Of a stretch of 64,000 nt of DNA, positions 3,689 through 50,112 are shown in pieces. The stretch comes from a virus. Below the pieces are notes generated by a model. It was not told the DNA's origin, made no database searches, and worked only from the letters and a program-made list of their open reading frames with translations. The translations under genes were made by a program, and so were the position numbers. The stretch spans positions 62,001-126,000 of IMG/VR virus record IMGVR_UViG_3300044611_002466. The stretch is one strand, 5' to 3'. The stretch's first letter is position 1. Each line of letters begins with the position of its first letter.

Positions 3689-6106
3689 ATGTTGTCCGCC
3701 TCGAGCTCTGCGGGGCATCGCGTCCCCCTACCTCCGCGTGCTGTTGCCGGGGGGCGCATCTTCGCCGAGCTCGGGACCAAGCTCGCGGACCTGATGCCCG
3801 CTCCGACGCAGCCGAGCTCGGCCCTTCGCCCTGGCGTGGAGTTCCGTCCCCACCAGGAGGACGCCATCCAGAAGGCCATGCGGCAGAACGGCAACCTGCT
3901 GCTGAGCCACCCAGTCGGCTCCGGCAAGACGGTCACGGCCATCGGCGCGTTCGAGCGGCTGCGGCAGGCAGGGAGGGCCACGCGGGCCCTCATCGTGACC
4001 CCGGCCTCCCTGCGGAAGAACTTCACCGACGAGGGAGTGCACAAGTTCACGACGGACCACTGCACCGTGTTCGGCAACGCCCAGGAGGTGGCCGCGGGTC
4101 AGGGCCGAGCTCTCGACAACCCGGACCCCGACTCCCGCTACCACGTGGTCAGCTACGACCTCTTCCGCGCGGCCCCCGAGGCGTACATCAAGGCCTCTGG
4201 GGCGGACACCGTCATCTACGACGAGCTCCACAAGATCAAGAACATCGGTGCCACGGGCAAGGCGCTGAAGGACGCCAGGAAGTTCCACCGGAACTTCATC
4301 GGCCTCACGGGCTCCATCGTCAGCAACACCCCTGCCGACCTGGTACCGCTCATCGACGCCATGACGGACGGGAAGCATCACCTGGGCACCAAGGAGAACT
4401 TCGAGCGGAGGTTCATGACCGACGACGGGAAGCTGCAGAACACGCCCATCGTGCGGATGTTGTTGAACCCCTACATCCACCACGTCGACGCCGCGGCGAG
4501 CTCCGGCAACATGCCGGTGAAGGAGACGGAGACCATCAAGGTCGACATGTCCCCCGAGCAGCGCGAGCTCTACCAGTACGTCGTGGGGAGGATGGATCCG
4601 GTCACCGCGCTGAAGTTCCGCTTTGGCACGTCGAAGCTGAAGACCAACGACGTCAACAACATCTTCAACAAGATGACCCAGGCGAGGCAGGTCTCCAACG
4701 CCATCCACACGGTCAACAAGTCGGTGACGCTCTCTGAGAGTGCAGAGCGCTCTCCGAAGATTCGGAAGATCCTGGACGACGTGGAGGACCACCTCAGGGA
4801 CACGCCAGACGGCCAGGTCATCATCTACTCGAACATGATCCACGGCGGCCTCGACGTCATCGGGCAGGGCCTGCGCGACCGCGGCATCGACCACGGGATC
4901 TTCATGGGCAAGGGCCAGCCCGGGTCCACCGAGAAGAGCCGGACGCAGGCGGTCTCGGACTACCAAGCTGGCAAGAAGAAGGTCATCCTCCTCTCCTCCG
5001 CCGGTGGCGAGGGGCTGAACCTCGGCAACACGACCTTCGTGGCCAACGTCGATGGACACTTCAACCCTGAGAAGATCCACCAAGCAGAGGCCCGCGGTGT
5101 GCGCGCCGGCGGGCAGGCCCACCGCGCCCAGGCCGATCGCAAGGTCATCGTCAGGCGCTACGTCACGAGGGTCCCGCTCTCGACGTCGACGGTCCTCAAG
5201 GACACGATGAACCTCGTCGCGCCCAGCCAGATCATCACGCGGGCCCTGGAAGGGCAGCCGGTGTTCTACAACCCCCTGAAGAGGGAGCGGTCTCCGGACG
5301 AGTGGGCTTACGAGGTCGCAGGGCTAAAGGACGAGCGGAACAAGGCTCTCCGCGGCAACCTCGACAAGTCGGCTGAGCAGGTGCCGGACAGCGTCGAGGA
5401 CATGTTGGACCTCCTCGAGGCAGGCGTTGTCGCGCGAGCGGAGGACCGAGCACTGCCGCTGGTGAAGGAGGCCGTTGCGAAGGTGGACCACAAGGAACGG
5501 CGGATGGCCGCCGACCGCATTCCGATGCAACCGCACCGGCTCGTCAAGTCCGACCGCGTCGTGATGAACGCGTACATGAAGGAGTTCTCCCCCCACCTCG
5601 AAGAGGCCACGGACCCGGCCACGGTCGCGCTCCCCGCGGACAAGCAGCTGCGCGAGCAGGAGTACATCGCTGCGCTCCGGGCCTACTACCGGGAGGCAGC
5701 CAAGGGAGGCGGTACCGGACTGTCGAAGGCCACGACAGACGAGGAGCGGAAGAAGGAGGTGTGGCGCAATGCCGCGCTCGCCGGAGGCATCGGAACCGTC
5801 TGGGGCGGTACGCAGGGCACAGTTCAGGCGGTGGCCGGCGGCCTGCCCCTCACACACTCGCTGATGTTTGGCGCGGGGACGGCCGCCCTCCTCGGCGGTA
5901 CCTTCGGTGGCATGACCCTCTGGGATGGGATGCGCAATCCCGCCTACAGCACTCCCGCCACGCGTGCCAGGAAGACCGGCAAGCTGACCGACGCTCAGAT
6001 GGTACAGCTCCTCCGCGGCCTGGAGGTGCAGCAGAAGGAGGAGAAGACCCACCGATTCGCCGTAGGATCCACTCCTCGGGCTACCACTACTACCCTCCCT
6101 TCTTGA
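3689..6106 (+). CDS. SNF2-type superfamily 2 helicase with hydrophobic C-terminus, virion-associated candidate
   Basis: 805 residues. Walker A HPVGSGKT at 74-81, DELH box at 178-181, motif III GLTGSIVSN, and a C-terminal helicase lobe with LLSSAGGEGLNLGN and a QAEARGVRAGG arginine-finger region, so both RecA-like lobes of an SNF2/RapA-like ATPase are present. Unusually, residues about 690-745 form two glycine-rich hydrophobic segments (for example SLMFGAGTAALLGGTFGG) that look like membrane or membrane-fusing helices. Lying inside the tail gene block and upstream of a polyvalent protein with similar segments, it may be packaged and ejected with the DNA; that is inference. Confidence 0.85.
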   Translation: MLSASSSAGHRVPLPPRAVAGGRIFAELGTKLADLMPAPTQPSSALRPGVEFRPHQEDAIQKAMRQNGNLLLSHPVGSGKTVTAIGAFERLRQAGRATRALIVTPASLRKNFTDEGVHKFTTDHCTVFGNAQEVAAGQGRALDNPDPDSRYHVVSYDLFRAAPEAYIKASGADTVIYDELHKIKNIGATGKALKDARKFHRNFIGLTGSIVSNTPADLVPLIDAMTDGKHHLGTKENFERRFMTDDGKLQNTPIVRMLLNPYIHHVDAAASSGNMPVKETETIKVDMSPEQRELYQYVVGRMDPVTALKFRFGTSKLKTNDVNNIFNKMTQARQVSNAIHTVNKSVTLSESAERSPKIRKILDDVEDHLRDTPDGQVIIYSNMIHGGLDVIGQGLRDRGIDHGIFMGKGQPGSTEKSRTQAVSDYQAGKKKVILLSSAGGEGLNLGNTTFVANVDGHFNPEKIHQAEARGVRAGGQAHRAQADRKVIVRRYVTRVPLSTSTVLKDTMNLVAPSQIITRALEGQPVFYNPLKRERSPDEWAYEVAGLKDERNKALRGNLDKSAEQVPDSVEDMLDLLEAGVVARAEDRALPLVKEAVAKVDHKERRMAADRIPMQPHRLVKSDRVVMNAYMKEFSPHLEEATDPATVALPADKQLREQEYIAALRAYYREAAKGGGTGLSKATTDEERKKEVWRNAALAGGIGTVWGGTQGTVQAVAGGLPLTHSLMFGAGTAALLGGTFGGMTLWDGMRNPAYSTPATRARKTGKLTDAQMVQLLRGLEVQQKEEKTHRFAVGSTPRATTTTLPS

Positions 6107-6146
6107 GGGACATCGCCGACGGGCGCGTCGAGTTACAGGGAGGCCC

Positions 6147-8207
6147 ATGTCTGAACTACCCCCCTCCGTAGAGCGAGCCATCGGTACCACCGTGCACTGG
6201 GCCGCCTTCGCGGACGAGCTCGGGAAGCAGGCTGCCGTGGTGGAGGTCGCACACAACTTCCACCCCGTCGTCGTGCAGCCTCCGCGGGCGAAGCGTGCGA
6301 AGTTCCCCTTCACTGGCTTTATCGACTTCCAGGGCATCAAGATCGACGTCGAGAACAAGAAGGGCGAGTACCGCCGCGGGAAGGACAAGGACGGGCACGA
6401 GTGGAAGTGCCTGATGCACTCGCACTACGGCGAGATCCGGGACACGGAGGGCACCGACGGCGACAAGCTCGACGTCTACGTTGGCCCCAACCACGACTCG
6501 AGCTTGGTCGTGGTCGTTCGACAGCTCAAGCCAGACACAGGAGCCTTCGACGAAGACAAGGTGATGCTCGGGTACGACTCAGTGGAAGAGGCCATCGGAG
6601 CCTATAAGAAGCAGTATGACAAGCCTGGCTTCTACAAGGACGGTGGCCACAAGGTGATGCCGATCGGTGAGTTCTGGCGGTGGGTGCACGACCGCGAGAA
6701 CTACGGCAAGAAGGTGGCTGGATTCCTACATGACCTGACCGGCAGAAGTCTGGACGAGGCGCGCAAGGCGCACGTGCGTAGGGTGGAAGAACACAATGCC
6801 CACCTGCAGGGCGCGATCCGCGACTACGACGAGATGCGTGACTTGGTGGAGCAGTCAGCCCGATGGAAGTCGACGAGGCTTGGGAGGCACCGCAAGCGCC
6901 TTGCCGACGCCGCCAAGTCCGTCGAGCGTATTGCGGCCCTGGCTCCTCCGCATTTCGACCCCTCTCCGATCGCCAGGAGGATCCGAAACACGCGTCTCGG
7001 CACCGCGGCTGTTCTCGGTGGGGGCGCGTTGCTCACGGGGCTTGCCGCGCACCGTCACAGACAACCCGAGGCGAAGAAGGCGGCGGCCCCCCTGGACGCG
7101 GGGGTGCGAGAGTTCGCCCTGCACCCTCGTCTCCAGAAGGCGCTGGGTGGTGTAGCCGCCGCCGGAGGCCTGTACGCGGGGTACAAGTACCGCCAGCGGG
7201 AGCGCCTGAAGGAGCTGGAGTCCGGCACGCCCAGTATGGGCAGACACGCGCTGGAAGGAGGAGCAGCGGGCGTCCTCGCAGGCGCGAGTCTCGGCGGAGC
7301 AGCGGTACACAAGGCCAAGCCCGTGCTCGCGCGGATGCGGGACCTTACTGCACCAGTCGCGGCAGCTATGACAGAGAGCGCCAAGACGATGCGGAACTCG
7401 GGGATGTCCCCGGAGAAGATCAAGCAGACCGTTCTCCAGAACCCCGTGTCCGTCAAGGGACTGCACGTGGCGCGAGCAGGGCATGCGGCGCACCTGCTCC
7501 ACGGGAAGCTCAGTGTCGGGAGGGGTGCCCTGGCAGGCGCAGCCATCGCTGGTATTGCTGGCGCCGGGCTCGCGGCACGCGGCGCACGCGGAGACGAGGC
7601 GAAGGCTGACCTCCGCGGAGAGCAGCGACGGCTCAAGCGCGGCCCGTACGCCCAGCCTAAGGAGGCCGGTGCGAGCCCCCTCTCTGCGGCGGGGACTGCT
7701 ACTCCCAGCGGCCTCGTAGCACGGAACAAGATGCAGAAGACGGCGCCCCCGCACTACACCCCACCGCCTGCTGCCGTACAGGTCGCGCCCTCGCCGTGGA
7801 CAAAGGGAGCGGACGCTGAGCTGCCCGGCGTCGGTGACGAGGGAGAGCGGCCGCACATCCCTGGGATGAAGCAGCCTCGCCTGGCCACTCCACGCCTGAA
7901 CCCCGACCAAGGGAAGCACATCCCCACGAACCCCTTCCGCGGCAGCTGGAAGAAGCTGGGAGGCGGTCCCTTACACGAGGTCGCCGAGGTGGCGCACCAC
8001 TTGACCGCTGCGATCCCTGAGAAGGTGAAGCACGGCATCCTGGGCGCTGGCATCTTGGGCGCGGGGGCCCTGGGGCTAAAAGCAACCGCCGACCAGGTGG
8101 TCAATCCCCGCCCTGAGGGGGTTGGCTTAGGCGCTGGAGCGCGAGCCGGCCAGAAGGCTCTGACTCTTGGGCTCTCGCGGGCTGGATCGGGGCCCGTGCA
8201 GTATTAG
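6147..8207 (+). CDS. Polyvalent-type protein with inorganic-pyrophosphatase-like domain
   Basis: 686 residues. Residues about 45-200 match the phage/plasmid Inorganic Pyrophosphatase domain of polyvalent proteins: GTDGDKLDVYVGPN (about 100-113), FDEDKVMLGYDSVEEAI, and MPIGEFWRW. The remaining 480 residues alternate basic stretches with at least five Gly/Ala-rich hydrophobic segments (such as ALAGAAIAGIAGAGLAARGA), suggesting membrane insertion. Polyvalent proteins are known as multi-domain proteins delivered with incoming DNA. Near the N-terminus is FADELGKQA, a short motif I associate with phage internal virion proteins. Start ATG at 6147 has GGGAGG upstream. The 3' end overlaps the convergent minus-strand gene at 8101 by 107 bases. 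Confidence 0.8.
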   Translation: MSELPPSVERAIGTTVHWAAFADELGKQAAVVEVAHNFHPVVVQPPRAKRAKFPFTGFIDFQGIKIDVENKKGEYRRGKDKDGHEWKCLMHSHYGEIRDTEGTDGDKLDVYVGPNHDSSLVVVVRQLKPDTGAFDEDKVMLGYDSVEEAIGAYKKQYDKPGFYKDGGHKVMPIGEFWRWVHDRENYGKKVAGFLHDLTGRSLDEARKAHVRRVEEHNAHLQGAIRDYDEMRDLVEQSARWKSTRLGRHRKRLADAAKSVERIAALAPPHFDPSPIARRIRNTRLGTAAVLGGGALLTGLAAHRHRQPEAKKAAAPLDAGVREFALHPRLQKALGGVAAAGGLYAGYKYRQRERLKELESGTPSMGRHALEGGAAGVLAGASLGGAAVHKAKPVLARMRDLTAPVAAAMTESAKTMRNSGMSPEKIKQTVLQNPVSVKGLHVARAGHAAHLLHGKLSVGRGALAGAAIAGIAGAGLAARGARGDEAKADLRGEQRRLKRGPYAQPKEAGASPLSAAGTATPSGLVARNKMQKTAPPHYTPPPAAVQVAPSPWTKGADAELPGVGDEGERPHIPGMKQPRLATPRLNPDQGKHIPTNPFRGSWKKLGGGPLHEVAEVAHHLTAAIPEKVKHGILGAGILGAGALGLKATADQVVNPRPEGVGLGAGARAGQKALTLGLSRAGSGPVQY

Positions 8208-31806: not shown

Positions 31807-32102
31807 GTCGAGTCCTGCGGGTCGTTCACGTTGGGGACGTTCTCCTGTCCGAAGTAGGCGCGGCAGTCCGCTCGAAGAGCCCGACGAAGTCTACGCGTCT
31901 TCAGCAGGCGCTGGAGGATGCCCGCGTAGTCAGGCCAGTTCTCGGGCCGGGGCTCCTCGTTGAGAGCCATCTCGTCGAACGAAGAGCGCCAGACCGCGAA
32001 CGCGGCCACTTCCTGCCAGTCCTTCTCCTTCATCCAGGAGAGCTCCGGGAAGCATGCGGTGAGGGCGCCGATCTCTTCCGTGGTCAGCGGTTCCGTCGAC
32101 AT
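31797..32102 (-). CDS. Unknown 101-residue protein
   Basis: ATG at 32102 in a TGATG overlap; GGGAGTGG upstream. Begins MSTEPLTTEEIGALTACFPE, helical, ending QENVPNVNDPQDSTWA. No family recognised. Confidence 0.6.
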   Translation of the reverse strand: MSTEPLTTEEIGALTACFPELSWMKEKDWQEVAAFAVWRSSFDEMALNEEPRPENWPDYAGILQRLLKTRRLRRALRADCRAYFGQENVPNVNDPQDSTWA

Positions 32103-33127
32103 CACCACTCCCACTTCGGCAGGTCGTCGCAGGCCTCCGCGTCTCGGTCGAAGTCGATGAGCAAGGCCTTCTCCTCCCTCGCCACCTTCAGGATCGGCCG
32201 GAGCCAGTCCGGCTCACCGGCGAGCTGCTCGTCGGACGGGGTGCCGTCCACGCCCGGCACGAAGACCACCCATCCGCACTCATGCGACACGGCGCGCACG
32301 TCCCCCCAGGGCGGGCTGGCCGAGGGCATGTGAGCGGTGGAGAGGTCCAGCGTCTTCTTGGTCGAGTTGCGCAGAAGAGCCATCTTCGTCCACCCCGCCT
32401 CCATGAGGTACCGGACTTGGCTGGTCGATCCCTCGTTGTTGATGTCAGACGCCTCGACGCTCTTCGCGTCGTGCACAACCTCGTCGAGGTCGTTGAGCTC
32501 GTCGACGGCCGTAGCGAACTGCTCGAACTCCGCCGCCTTCTTGGCACGAGCATGGGCGACGCCTCGAGCGGCCTCGGTACCGGCCTCCTTCGCAGCTTCC
32601 ATGCCGTAGAAGCCCCAGCAGCTCTCGGACATGTCTCCATCGACGACGTAGCCGTACACATCACCGCTGAGGTACTGGTTCCACTCGGCGACATGCGCCT
32701 CGGCGAGCTTCCTCCAGTCGACTTCCGCCTCCGGAATGCCGGAGTACTCGGCCCATTCCTTGCGGGGGATGAGGATCCACCCACAGCGGCTCACGTCCCA
32801 TTGCTGATCGGGGAAGGTAGAGGCCCTCTCGGAGCCCATGAGCGCGAGCACCACACCCCCGTGGATGTAGCTCGCCAGCGGCCAGATGGACCACGTCTTC
32901 TCCCCCTCCGGCTCGGCTGCGCGCTCACGGAGCCACTCTCTGATGTCAGCGCGCGAACGCTTGTCCTTCATCTCCTCAGGACAGACCTCGAGCTCGCGGT
33001 GGAAGTGCATCAGGTAGATCGGTGCGTCGGCGCTGTCTTCCGGATTCGAGGCGTGCTCGTCGATGAAGATCTGCACCAGGATCTCTTCCATCGTGAACGT
33101 CTCCACGGGCTTTGTCTCTCGTCCCAT
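32102..33127 (-). CDS. Unknown 341-residue phage protein with YIHGG motif
   Basis: ATG at 33127 with GGAAGG upstream. Residues about 80-115 (PLASYIHGGVVLALMG, WDVSRCGWILIPRKEWAEYS) match a pattern I recall from unannotated phage proteins with a YDHSGI-like turn followed by a WDSGQVG-like strand. C-terminal third is helical. Role unknown; gene sits directly upstream of the GyrB gene in the reading order 35054 to 31797. Confidence 0.65.
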   Translation of the reverse strand: MGRETKPVETFTMEEILVQIFIDEHASNPEDSADAPIYLMHFHRELEVCPEEMKDKRSRADIREWLRERAAEPEGEKTWSIWPLASYIHGGVVLALMGSERASTFPDQQWDVSRCGWILIPRKEWAEYSGIPEAEVDWRKLAEAHVAEWNQYLSGDVYGYVVDGDMSESCWGFYGMEAAKEAGTEAARGVAHARAKKAAEFEQFATAVDELNDLDEVVHDAKSVEASDINNEGSTSQVRYLMEAGWTKMALLRNSTKKTLDLSTAHMPSASPPWGDVRAVSHECGWVVFVPGVDGTPSDEQLAGEPDWLRPILKVAREEKALLIDFDRDAEACDDLPKWEW

Positions 33128-33152
33128 CGGTCCTTCCATTCGGTGAGGGAGC

Positions 33153-35054
33153 TCACCCATCTGTGTTGTTGCGGTACTCTGCGCTGGAGCCGGCCTCCTC
33201 GATGTAGGCGAGTCGCATGCGCACGTCCGAGCCCATGAGGTCCTGGAGCGTTGTCGCCGCCAGGAGCTCTTCGCCTTCCGGGATCGTCACGCGGAGCAGG
33301 CGTCGCGTCGATGGGTCCATGGTCGTGGCGTACAGCATCGCCGCCGGCATCTCGCCCAGTCCCTTGAAGTACGAGACCTGCGCCGTTCCCCGCATCCCAC
33401 GTGGCAGCGACGCGAGGTAGACGTCCCGCTCCTCGTCGTTGATCGCCCAGAAAGATGCGGAGCCCGCGTTGATCCTGTAGAGCGGAGGACACGCCAAGAA
33501 CAACTTCCCTGCGCGGATGAGCTGAGGCATCGCGCGGAAGAAGAACGTGAGCAGCAGCGTGGAGATGTGGTGCCCGTCCACATCGGCGTCGACCATCAGG
33601 AGGACCTTGCCGTAGCGCAGCTTGCTGAGGTCGAAGTCGTTCCCGATTCCGCACCCCAGCGCCTGGATGAGGTTCGAGATCTCCTGATTCGACTCCATCT
33701 TCTGGAGAGGTACCTCCATCACGTTCAGGACCTTCCCGCGCAGAGGAAGGACGGCCTGCACGTCTCGGTTGCGTCCCTGCTTGGCCGAGCCACCGGCGGA
33801 GTCCCCCTCCACGACGAAGAGCTCGGTCTCCGCCACGCTCGACGAGCTGCAGTCGGCCAGCTTGCCGGGGAGCGTGATGGCCCGCACCGGGCTCTTGCGC
33901 CGAACGTCGTAGACCGCGTCCCGTGCGGCCGTACGTGCCCTCGCAGCCTCCACCACGCGCGCTGCGAGACGTTCCGACTGCTTGTGGTTGGTCTGGAGCC
34001 ACACGCCCAGGGCGCGGCGAACCTCCCCCGCCACGAAGCCCTGTACCTCCGGGTTGTTCAGGCGATCCTTCGTCTGGCCCTGGAACTGTGGGTTCTCCAC
34101 GAGCACGTGGATGGCCCCTATGAGGCCTTCCCGGACGTCCTCCGCTTCGACGGCTGGCTTGCGTGGGAGGAGGCCCCGCTCCTCCATGAAGTCGCGCACC
34201 GTCGCCGCCACGACGGTCTTCAGGCCTGCGACGTGCGTGCCGCCGTCCCTGGTCGGGATGCCGTTCGCGAAGGCCTGCAAGGTCTCGTCCATCTGCCGGT
34301 GGTCCGTGGTCCACGTGAGGGCGACGTGCAGGTTGGCGAGCGTGAGGAGGAAGGGGAACTCCGTCACGCTCGTGAGCTTCTCGTCGACGAGGCGCTCCGT
34401 CAGCATGTCCGACAGCCCGCCCTTGAAGCAGAACTCCTCCCCCGCCAGGAGGAAGCGTACTCCCGGATTCAGGTACGCCTTCACCTTGACCCGCTCTCGG
34501 ACCAGGGCGCGATCGAACACCTGCTCGCCGAAGATCTGCACGTCGGGAGTGAACGTGGTCTTCGTCCCCCGCCGGGTCGCGCGCCCCGTGCGCGCGATCT
34601 TGGCCACGCTGGGGATGCCGCGGCGGTACACCTGCGTGTACGTCTGCTCCCCCCTGCCGATGGTGATCTGCAGGCTGGACGACAACGCGTTCACCACGCT
34701 GCTGCCCACGCCATGCAGACCACCCGCGTTCTTGTAGGCACCGCCTCCGAACTTCCCGCCCGAGTGCAGGGTGGTGAGGATCACCTCGACGGCCGGCCTG
34801 CCGCTCTTGTGCATGTCGAAGGGGATGCCGCGGCCGTTGTCCGTCACCGTCGCCGAGGTCGCCGTGCTGTCCAGCTCGATCTCTACCTCGGTGGCGTGCC
34901 CCGCGATGGCCTCGTCGACGGAGTTGTCGACGATCTCCCACAGCAGGTGGTGGAACCCATCCTTCCCGGTGCCGCCCACGTACATGCCGGGGCGTTTGCG
35001 CACCGGGTCCAGACCCTCGAGAACCTCGATGCTCGAAGCGTCGTAACCGCTCAT
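33153..35054 (-). CDS. Type II topoisomerase B subunit (GyrB/ParE-like)
   Basis: 633 residues, full length. ATPase domain of the GHKL type (EIVDNSVDEAIAGHA, TDNGRGIPFDMHKSGRPAVE and GGLHGVGSSVVNALS); TOPRIM domain with EGDSAGGSAKQGRNRD and DADVDGHHISTLLLTF, where the usual A of DADVDGAH is H. C-terminal LPRGMRGTAQVSYFKGLGEM. With a GyrA/ParC partner it would alter DNA topology using ATP. No A subunit is seen in the window. Start at 35054 overlaps the stop of the gene before; no start further upstream has a ribosome binding site. Confidence 0.93.
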   Translation of the reverse strand: MSGYDASSIEVLEGLDPVRKRPGMYVGGTGKDGFHHLLWEIVDNSVDEAIAGHATEVEIELDSTATSATVTDNGRGIPFDMHKSGRPAVEVILTTLHSGGKFGGGAYKNAGGLHGVGSSVVNALSSSLQITIGRGEQTYTQVYRRGIPSVAKIARTGRATRRGTKTTFTPDVQIFGEQVFDRALVRERVKVKAYLNPGVRFLLAGEEFCFKGGLSDMLTERLVDEKLTSVTEFPFLLTLANLHVALTWTTDHRQMDETLQAFANGIPTRDGGTHVAGLKTVVAATVRDFMEERGLLPRKPAVEAEDVREGLIGAIHVLVENPQFQGQTKDRLNNPEVQGFVAGEVRRALGVWLQTNHKQSERLAARVVEAARARTAARDAVYDVRRKSPVRAITLPGKLADCSSSSVAETELFVVEGDSAGGSAKQGRNRDVQAVLPLRGKVLNVMEVPLQKMESNQEISNLIQALGCGIGNDFDLSKLRYGKVLLMVDADVDGHHISTLLLTFFFRAMPQLIRAGKLFLACPPLYRINAGSASFWAINDEERDVYLASLPRGMRGTAQVSYFKGLGEMPAAMLYATTMDPSTRRLLRVTIPEGEELLAATTLQDLMGSDVRMRLAYIEEAGSSAEYRNNTDG

Positions 35055-35380
35055 TGTCGTCGTTCCTTCCACGTGAGGCGTAGTGCGGAGAAGTCCTCGC
35101 TCAGCAGCCAGCGCTGGAAGGCGTCGATGACTTCCCGCTGCGGAATGCCGCGAGTCGCCGCGATCCTCCGAATCTCGGTCTCCCCTCGAAGCCGCTCCTG
35201 CAGTACGCGCTTGTCCTCCTGCAGCTCGGACATCTCCAACATGAGCGCGCCCACCAGGCGGTCGTGGTCGCGCACACGCTGGGATGCGTCCAGCAGCTTA
35301 CGCAACAGCTTCTGCTCGAGCTGGGTGGGGAGTCGTTCCTGGGACGGTGGAGTCGCCTCTCCGTTCGTCACAGCGTCCAT
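35051..35380 (-). CDS. Unknown 109-residue coiled-coil protein
   Basis: ATG at 35380, helical with heptads (LLDASQRVRDHDRLVGALML, VLQERLRGETEIRRI). Sits between GyrB and a small gene, overlapping both. Could be an oligomerisation or assembly factor; no family recognised. Confidence 0.6.
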   Translation of the reverse strand: MDAVTNGEATPPSQERLPTQLEQKLLRKLLDASQRVRDHDRLVGALMLEMSELQEDKRVLQERLRGETEIRRIAATRGIPQREVIDAFQRWLLSEDFSALRLTWKERRQ

Positions 35381-48772: not shown

Positions 48773-49387
48773 CTACTGCGGGAACGAGAACGGCTCCGAG
48801 ATGGCAGGCGGGATGGGGATGTGCTGACGGATGATGTTTGCAATCTCGTCGAGGTCTATGTGCTTCTCCTGGCGCATGTACATGCGGTCAGAGTACCCCG
48901 CATTGTGGACGAGATCGGAGAGGCGCGTCTGTTGGTTGCCGTCGAGCGGTCTCGGAGTCTGATAGTACCGCTTATCGACGAGCAGTATCCCATACTGGAT
49001 CCACCGCGGATACATCCGCCATTTACCCGTGCCGCCGGTGAATCCAAACTCGATCCAAAGCTCAGAGCGTGCACTGTCGTTGGAGAAGTGCGGGTCGATA
49101 GCGGCCCAGCGCTCCAGGAACCTCGCCACCTTTTCCTCCTCGACGTCATTCCTGATGTTGAGCAGGCGGATGATGTCCGATGCGATTCGCACGAGGGGGA
49201 TGAGGTCCATCGGCTTGCAGAGCCACGCGATTGCCCATGCCATCCAGTCGCCGCGCGAACAGGCATCCCACGCCTCTACGAGAGTGTCGTACTCGTTGCT
49301 CTTCACCCACTCGAAGGCCTCGTCGCACGCTCCTGCACGCCGAATAGATTCCAGAAGATTGGCATGTTCAGGGATTGTTGCACTCAT
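48773..49387 (-). CDS. Unknown 204-residue protein
   Basis: ATG at 49387, overlapping the upstream stop. Begins MSATIPEHANLLESIRRAGA and continues WVKSNEYDTLVEAWDACSRG then AWAIAWLCKPMD, like phage proteins of the 'cysteine-tryptophan helical repeat' kind that count Trp/Asp repeats (W-x-x-C). C-terminal 60 residues are charged helices. No family recognised. Confidence 0.6.
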   Translation of the reverse strand: MSATIPEHANLLESIRRAGACDEAFEWVKSNEYDTLVEAWDACSRGDWMAWAIAWLCKPMDLIPLVRIASDIIRLLNIRNDVEEEKVARFLERWAAIDPHFSNDSARSELWIEFGFTGGTGKWRMYPRWIQYGILLVDKRYYQTPRPLDGNQQTRLSDLVHNAGYSDRMYMRQEKHIDLDEIANIIRQHIPIPPAISEPFSFPQ

Positions 49388-49698
49388 ACGTTGCTCCTGG
49401 CCTTCCAGCGCTTCCAGCTCTCGCAGAGCGCCGGGATGTAACAGTGGTACATGGACTGCCTGGGGCCGTTGATGGCCGCCAAGCTCTCATCCCAGCAGCG
49501 GTCGGACAGCGTCATGGACGCGTAGTCCGGTCCGTTGTTGCCGAAGCGTGCGATGCAACAGGTGTGCGGCCCCTCGTCGGTGACGAGGCTATCCGCACAC
49601 CTGTAGTGGTCGAGAATCCGCCCATCGCTCTCCGACTGGCCGAGGTACACGCAGGCCTCGCAGTCGTGGGTGTAGGCGGGAAGCTGTTCTACCGCCAT
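49384..49698 (-). CDS. Unknown cysteine-rich 104-residue protein
   Basis: ATG at 49698. Begins MAVEQLPAYTHDCEACVYLG, with CEAC and several further Cys (GPHTCCIARFG, YHCYIPALC), so it may bind zinc or an Fe-S cluster. No family recognised. Overlaps the bL12-like gene by 10 bases. Confidence 0.6.
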   Translation of the reverse strand: MAVEQLPAYTHDCEACVYLGQSESDGRILDHYRCADSLVTDEGPHTCCIARFGNNGPDYASMTLSDRCWDESLAAINGPRQSMYHCYIPALCESWKRWKARSNV

Positions 49699-50039
49699 TC
49701 GATGTGCGCTCCCGCAGCCATCAGCCGCTGCACGACCAAGTTGGTCAGGTGGTACTTCCCGAGGCAGAAGGGCAGGGGGTTGTCCTCCACCATGGCCTTG
49801 ATTTGCGTCAGTCCTTCCTCAGGGCGGAGCTCTCGGAGCAGAGCGATGGCCTCCACTTTGCCGACCATGTAGCGGCGAGAGTTCGGCAGGGGCAGGCGGT
49901 GGTGCACGTTGGGGGGCAGCGCCAGAAGCCACAGCTCCATCCGAGGGTCCGTCTCGTTCAGTAGGGAGAGCACTTCGGTCCGCAGGTTGTTCAGTCCCGC
50001 CAAGAGCTCCTGGAGCTTCTTCTTCTGCTCATCGGTCAT
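49689..50039 (-). CDS. Ribosomal protein bL12 C-terminal domain-like protein
   Basis: 116 residues from ATG 50039 (GGAGG upstream). Residues about 57-116 (YMVGKVEAIALLRELRPEEG, LTQIKAMVEDNPLPF and MAAGAHIEW) align with the bL12 C-terminal domain pattern KVxVIKxVR...GLKEAKxxVExxP...AGAxVE. In ribosomes this domain recruits translation factors. The N-terminal 55 residues are a different helical region, not a bL12 dimerisation domain by eye. It may attach to host ribosomes or factors. It begins a transcript with CATAAG. Confidence 0.8.
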   Translation of the reverse strand: MTDEQKKKLQELLAGLNNLRTEVLSLLNETDPRMELWLLALPPNVHHRLPLPNSRRYMVGKVEAIALLRELRPEEGLTQIKAMVEDNPLPFCLGKYHLTNLVVQRLMAAGAHIEWR

Positions 50040-50061
50040 GATGTCATTTACCTCCGCACTT

Positions 50062-50067
50062 CTTATG
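50062..50067 (-). promoter_or_regulatory. CATAAG promoter element
   Basis: GTTTTGGACATAAGAAG on the minus strand, 22 bases before ATG 50039. TTTCTTTAGCTC and a hairpin lie upstream. Confidence 0.7.
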
Positions 50068-50093
50068 TCCAAAACGACGCAGAGCTAAAGAAA

Positions 50094-50112
50094 CAGGGCC
50101 CGAAGTGCCCTG
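50094..50112 (-). terminator. Terminator at operon junction
   Basis: Arms CAGGGC / GCCCTG with 7-base loop; minus strand continues TTTCTTTAGC. It follows the stop of the 50140-50826 gene by 28 bases. Confidence 0.75.

What the first reader, a model, noticed from the sequence alone, without database searches (positions are those of the whole stretch)
49689..50039. Phage-encoded bL12 C-terminal domain
The KVxAIxLLRxL...LTQIKAMVEDxP...AGAxIEW pattern matches the ribosomal bL12 C-terminal domain, which binds translation factors. Phage-encoded bL12 and bS21 have been reported in uncultivated viruses, but here a non-ribosomal N-terminal half is present. It could replace host bL12 or capture EF-G/EF-Tu.
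Basis: partly seen in the sequence, partly recalled or inferred. Interest (0 to 1): 0.7.

Follow-up and report, generated by a model that had tools for sequence, protein, structure and literature searches.

The report
Divergent phage protein with ribosomal-stalk domain
A large uncultivated phage encodes a small protein whose C-terminal half descends from the ribosomal stalk protein bL12, but it lacks the part that anchors bL12 to ribosomes and has lost some of the residues that contact translation factors, so it is a new, divergent member of a known class of phage bL12-domain proteins rather than a proven ribosome part.

Summary
The bL12 C-terminal-domain (CTD) resemblance is real but remote. 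A related 183-kb phage (G001) carries an ortholog in the same gene neighbourhood (36% identity, shuffle-derived p about 4e-8). That ortholog matches Pfam Ribosomal_L12 at E=1.3e-11 and E. coli L7/L12 CTD (1ctf) at E=1.9e-6. An alignment-guided model of the target CTD has bL12 CTDs as its best PDB matches (Z 8.1-8.6), with ClpS next (about 5.4). The bL12 N-terminal dimerisation/bL10-binding domain is absent; a short heptad-repeat helix stands in its place. Replacement of host bL12 is therefore unlikely. G001 keeps the translation-factor-binding residues; the window protein has lost K70, K81 and E82, and its binding face is net negative. Phage proteins carrying bL12 CTDs with unrelated flanking sequence are already published (Mizuno et al. 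2019). Best reading: a probably oligomeric, non-ribosomal bL12-CTD mimic that binds stalk partners in trans (inferred; weaker for the window copy). In both phages the gene follows a shared CATAAG promoter-like motif. New member of a known kind; modest interest.

The parts
49689..50039 (-). Gene for the 116-aa bL12-CTD-like protein (ATG 50039, stop 49691-49689); a longer TTG start at 50072 is less likely
   Evidence: GGAGGT 10 nt upstream of the ATG; ortholog in G001
49959..50024 (-). Residues 6-27: leucine heptad helix (L9 L12 L16 L19 V23 L26), a probable short coiled coil in place of the bL12 N-terminal domain
   Evidence: 6 of 6 a/d positions hydrophobic, reached by 0.46% of shuffles; helix 3-29 in the low-confidence single-sequence model; weakly conserved with G001 (p about 0.002)
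49692..49949 (-). Residues 31-116: bL12 CTD-like domain (beta1 ELWLLAL, helices alpha4 and alpha5, beta2, alpha6, beta3 HIEW) with a beta1-alpha4 loop about 16 residues longer than in ordinary bL12
   Evidence: alignment A4, model me9ed7d4f3250, top PDB matches all bL12 CTD
49776..49862 (-). Residues 60-88: counterpart of the translation-factor-binding helices alpha4-alpha5; K65, V66, I69, R73, L80, K84 kept, K70A, K81T, E82Q changed, net charge -2 (E. coli +2, G001 0)
50050..50067 (-). CATAAGAAGTGCGGAGGT: promoter-like CATAAG plus Shine-Dalgarno, 17 of 18 bases shared with the element before the G001 ortholog
50087..50112 (-). Terminator-like hairpin CAGGGC-ACTTCGG-GCCCTG with U-rich tail, probably ending the preceding transcription unit
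   Evidence: region folds at -19.4 kcal/mol, z -2.0; not listed by the simple terminator scan
49384..49698 (-). Downstream Cys-rich 104-aa gene, start overlapping the L12-like gene by 10 bases; 55% identical homolog in G001

Best explanation
It is a phage-encoded orphan bL12 C-terminal domain on a short helical (probably coiled-coil) oligomerisation segment, expressed as the first gene of a small phage transcription unit. It most likely works off the ribosome: tethered CTDs present the alpha4-alpha5 face to partners of the host stalk (translation GTPases such as EF-Tu, EF-G, IF2 or RF3, or other stalk-binding proteins) and so compete with, or redirect, recruitment to the ribosome. Shown: gene, homology, missing bL12 N-terminal domain, conserved binding residues in the ortholog, promoter-like element. 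Inferred: oligomerisation, partner binding, effect on infection. In the window's own copy the basic face is eroded, so its partner or affinity has probably shifted.
For: Ortholog hits PF00542 at E=1.3e-11 and 1ctf at E=1.9e-6; target to ortholog p about 1e-8 to 4e-8 with shared neighbourhood genes; the pair profile against phage bL12 CTDs gives hhalign probability 97%; fold matches bL12 CTD above ClpS. No Ribosomal_L12_N match in the window's phage and no Ribosomal_L10 match in either. Heptad helix. K65 and K70 mutations reduce EF-Tu binding (PMC10602876), and alpha4/alpha5 form the positive face that meets negative patches on the GTPases (PMC3677378). Published phage bL12 domains usually sit beside unrelated sequence (PMC6375957).
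Against: Factor binding is untested. The window protein lacks K70, K81 and E82, and its alpha4-alpha5 face is net negative. The oligomerising helix is only a sequence pattern and is less regular in G001. Only two members of this exact family were found. No wider translation take-over set is evident (no tRNAs, no bL10).
Confidence: 0.5

Rival explanations
1. Repurposed fold: the bL12 CTD was captured long ago and in the window's lineage now binds an unrelated partner, with translation factors no longer recognised.
For: Loss of K70, K81 and E82 and charge reversal on the face while core residues (I69, G79, L80, V87) are kept; elongated beta1-alpha4 loop; no database profile recognises it.
Against: K65, V66, I69, R73, L80 and K84 remain, more than half of the face; the ortholog keeps all of it.
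Confidence: 0.3
2. Functional replacement of host bL12 in the ribosomal stalk, as first proposed by the reader.
For: A phage bL12-domain protein (Salmonella phage FSL SP-076) was detected in E. coli ribosome fractions (PMC6375957); other phage loci here encode complete bL12 (L007, L008: both Pfam domains).
Against: No bL12 N-terminal domain in the target, nor at cut-off in G001, so no known route to bL10; no phage bL10; in the same paper tagged viral bL12 could not be used to purify ribosomes.
Confidence: 0.08
3. Anti-defence decoy: it soaks up host effectors that are captured by the ribosomal stalk, such as the type III CRISPR effector Cami1.
For: Cami1 is described as a ribosomal-stalk-captured ribonuclease (Mogila et al. 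2023, title cited in PMC11229360); the bL12 chain of the Cami1-70S complex (8phj_W) is among the best structural matches (Z 8.3).
Against: No direct evidence; the host and its defences are unknown, and the structural match only reflects the bL12 fold.
Confidence: 0.07
4. ClpS-like N-degron adaptor: the fold is shared between ClpS and the bL12 CTD.
For: ClpS chains follow bL12 at Z about 5.4.
Against: Lower Z than bL12, 4-13% identity, and the ortholog matches Ribosomal_L12 by sequence, not ClpS.
Confidence: 0.02

Closest known systems
Phage-encoded bL12-domain proteins (Mizuno et al. 2019, PMC6375957); read here: Schitoviridae phages vB_DshP-R7L gp15 (L035) and vB_RpoP-V13 gp08 (L036)
   Same: Small phage proteins with a bL12 CTD beside non-ribosomal sequence; V13 gp08 (141 aa) has a long N-terminal segment before the CTD-like part
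   Different: Those keep recognisable PF00542 matches; the window protein falls below every profile and has lost three residues of the factor-binding face
Cellular ribosomal protein bL12 (L7/L12; 1ctf, 1rqu)
   Same: CTD fold, order of secondary structures, part of the factor-binding residues
   Different: No N-terminal dimerisation/bL10-binding domain, no flexible Ala-rich hinge, longer beta1-alpha4 loop
Complete phage bL12 in IMG/VR contigs (L007, L008; by sequence also L009, L012, L016)
   Same: Phage-encoded CTD
   Different: L007 and L008 match both Pfam bL12 domains, so these could enter the stalk
ClpS
   Same: Related alpha/beta fold
   Different: No sequence similarity found; weaker structural match

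Membership tests
bL12 C-terminal domain (Pfam PF00542) | Direct profile match over the gathering score | tested here: not met
   No match for the window protein even at E<=10; the G001 ortholog meets it with 45.1 bits against 25.9
bL12 C-terminal domain (Pfam PF00542) | Homology through an intermediate sequence | tested here: met
   Target to G001 p about 1e-8 to 4e-8 and G001 to bL12 CTDs; pair profile to bL12 hhalign probability 97.3%
bL12 C-terminal domain (Pfam PF00542) | beta-alpha-alpha-beta-alpha-beta CTD fold | tested here: met
   Model pLDDT 70.6, best PDB matches bL12 CTDs, Foldseek prob 1.00 and Z 8.1-8.6; bL12 rows were in the alignment, so not independent; the single-sequence model was uninformative
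bL12 C-terminal domain (Pfam PF00542) | Translation-factor-binding residues (K65, V66, I69, K70, R73, L80, K81, E82, K84) | tested here: inconclusive
   6 of 9 kept in the window protein, 9 of 9 in G001 (V66 as I)
Ribosomal protein bL12 (whole protein) | N-terminal dimerisation and bL10-binding domain (PF16320) | tested here: not met
   No match in G000; only sub-threshold 11.7 bits in G001, over the CTD region and not an N-terminal domain
Ribosomal protein bL12 (whole protein) | Incorporation in 50S subunits | not testable with these tools
   Needs an experiment
Phage bL12-domain proteins (Mizuno et al. 2019) | bL12 CTD homolog in a phage gene, commonly next to unrelated sequence | tested here: met
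   Phage record with tail sheath; CTD homology as above; non-ribosomal N-terminus
ClpS | Sequence similarity to ClpS | tested here: not met
   No Pfam ClpS match in target or ortholog at E<=10; identity 4-13% in structural alignments

The most novel reading that the evidence does not exclude
A phage-made, coiled-coil-tethered bL12-CTD mimic that acts off the ribosome as a decoy, either for translation GTPases or for stalk-captured defence effectors such as Cami1, with the window copy diverged under that conflict.
Probability: 0.12. Interest if true: 0.75.

Novelty: new member of a known kind. Interest (0 to 1): 0.33.

Why it matters
It adds a strongly diverged lineage to the phage bL12-domain proteins. 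The pair is useful because one phage keeps the whole translation-factor-binding face and its relative has lost part of it, on the same scaffold and behind the same promoter-like element. Comparing their binding partners would directly test whether such orphan CTDs act on translation factors at all, or on something else.

Tried and rejected
Direct Pfam, NCBIfam, PHROGs and PDB sequence searches with the target gave no L12 hit. Searches for close relatives of the target in IMG/VR, GTDB genomes and cultured phages found none; tblastn in phages gave only two chance-level hits in a phosphoribosyl transferase. Single-sequence AlphaFold gave pLDDT 50 and meaningless matches. The neighbour search with the Cys-rich 104-aa protein reached one further contig (L039), where no L12-like ORF was detected. 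A wider translation take-over set was looked for and not found (no tRNAs in the record or in L002, no bL10). The KEAKDLVE conservation of loci L006-L022 is partly imposed by the search pattern and was not used as evidence of constraint. dN/dS was not attempted: two orthologs at 36% identity are too diverged.

Full report
Observation. The minus-strand ORF at 49689-50039 encodes 116 aa from an ATG preceded by GGAGGT. It scores as coding. The window is positions 62001-126000 of a 188,230-bp virus record that encodes a contractile tail sheath, a phage-type gyrase B, ThyX and a ParB-like protein. No tRNA gene was found in the record.

Direct similarity. On its own the protein matches no Pfam, NCBIfam or PDB L12 sequence and no relevant PHROG. 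A profile of phage bL12 CTDs scores it at 4.8 bits, and 44 of 20,000 shuffles do as well.

Intermediate sequence. A neighbouring 378-aa gene led to a second phage, IMGVR_UViG_3300044695_008209 (182,777 bp, called G001; locus L002). Many genes of the window have homologs there in the same region. Between them lies a 156-aa ortholog (L002 7573-8043) that aligns with the target over its length at 36% identity. Shuffled-sequence statistics give p about 4e-8 for the whole protein and 1e-8 for the C-terminal part. The ortholog matches Pfam Ribosomal_L12 with 45.1 bits (cut-off 25.9, E=1.3e-11), NCBIfam L12 at 2.3e-9 but below its equivalog cut-off, and 1ctf at 1.9e-6. The profile of the pair matches phage bL12 CTDs with 97% probability. 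Homology of the window protein to the bL12 CTD is therefore well supported, by transitivity.

Fold. With the eight-row alignment A4 AlphaFold gives pLDDT 70.6 and pTM 0.61 with strands and helices in bL12 order. The best PDB matches are bL12 CTDs (Foldseek prob 1.00; Z 8.1-8.6, rmsd 1.7-2.3 over 61-70 residues). ClpS, the known related fold, follows at Z about 5.4. Because bL12 rows were in the alignment, this is a consistency check and not independent proof; the single-sequence model had pLDDT 50 and no useful match.

Anatomy. The N-terminal third is not the bL12 N-terminal domain: PF16320 has no match in G000 and only a sub-threshold one in G001. It is a leucine heptad helix (L9 L12 L16 L19 V23 L26; 6 of 6 a/d positions, reached by 0.46% of shuffles), weakly conserved with G001 (p about 0.002) and less regular there. 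The beta1-alpha4 loop is about 16 residues longer than in ordinary bL12. Of nine residues on the translation-factor face, G001 keeps all (V66 as I) and the window protein keeps K65, V66, I69, R73, L80 and K84 but has A, T and Q for K70, K81 and E82. Net charge of the alpha4-alpha5 stretch is +2 in E. coli, 0 in G001 and -2 here. Changing K65 or K70 of bacterial L7/L12 weakens EF-Tu binding (PMC10602876), and alpha4-alpha5 is the positive surface that meets negative patches on IF2, EF-Tu, EF-G and RF3 (PMC3677378).

Expression context. The gene is preceded by a terminator-like hairpin and by CATAAGAAGTGCGGAGGT; the G001 ortholog has CATAAGAACTGCGGAGGT. CATAAG occurs 17 times on the minus strand of the window and never on the plus strand (about 3 expected on each), 10 times just before a Shine-Dalgarno and start codon. 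It is likewise strand-specific in L002 (15 to 0), with conserved A's 19-20 bases upstream and a G at -2. It looks like a phage-specific promoter (inference). The gene overlaps the next one by 10 bases, so it probably heads a short unit.

Mechanism. Replacement of host bL12 would need the missing N-terminal domain or another route to bL10; the phage has no bL10 match. The best-supported reading is an off-ribosome, probably oligomeric, CTD mimic that competes for stalk partners, with the G001 copy better equipped to bind translation factors than the window copy. Binding, oligomerisation and effect on infection are inferred. A shifted partner in the window lineage is the main rival.

Known precedent. 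Mizuno et al. 2019 (PMC6375957) reported phage bL12 domains, commonly placed within unrelated polypeptides, and detected one in ribosome fractions, though ribosomes carrying tagged viral bL12 could not be purified. Al-Shayeb et al. 2020 (PMC7162821) list L7/L12 among huge-phage genes. Schitoviridae proteins read here (L035, L036) show the same kind of architecture. The finding is a new, strongly diverged member of that kind.

Noticed in passing
window, 17 sites on the minus strand (e.g. 50067, 52009, 54754, 57343, 57736, 58960, 59354, 63312); L002, 15 sites on the plus strand: Strand-specific promoter-like element: CATAAG with G at -2, conserved A's at -19/-20 and a short leader often ending in GAGGTGAAC-ATG; absent from the opposite strand. 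Possibly read by a phage-encoded sigma factor or RNA polymerase.
   Followed up: partly
L037 (Enterobacter phage SonariX, PQ898399.1 about 210,075-212,207): A well-conserved bL12 CTD (PF00542, E=7.4e-16) lies inside a large protein of at least 695 aa (the CDS runs past the stretch read) annotated as hypothetical; its C-terminal part resembles phage rIIB from memory, not tested.
   Followed up: no
L013, L014, L015, L017, L019, L020, L022: Several phage ORFs carry only the alpha4-alpha5 hairpin of bL12 (IK.VRE.TGLGLKEAKDLVE) without an evident rest of the CTD, as if the factor-binding part alone had been kept; the search pattern favours this stretch.
   Followed up: no
window 49384-49698 (minus) and L002 about 6048-6356: Cys-rich 104-aa protein (HDCEAC...CCIAR...GPRQSMYHCYIP), conserved at 55% between the two phages and possibly metal-binding; a third relative is in L039.
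   Followed up: partly
window 32102-33160 (minus): Protein with a C-terminal DUF5983 domain directly downstream of a phage gyrase B-like gene (33153-35072).
   Followed up: no
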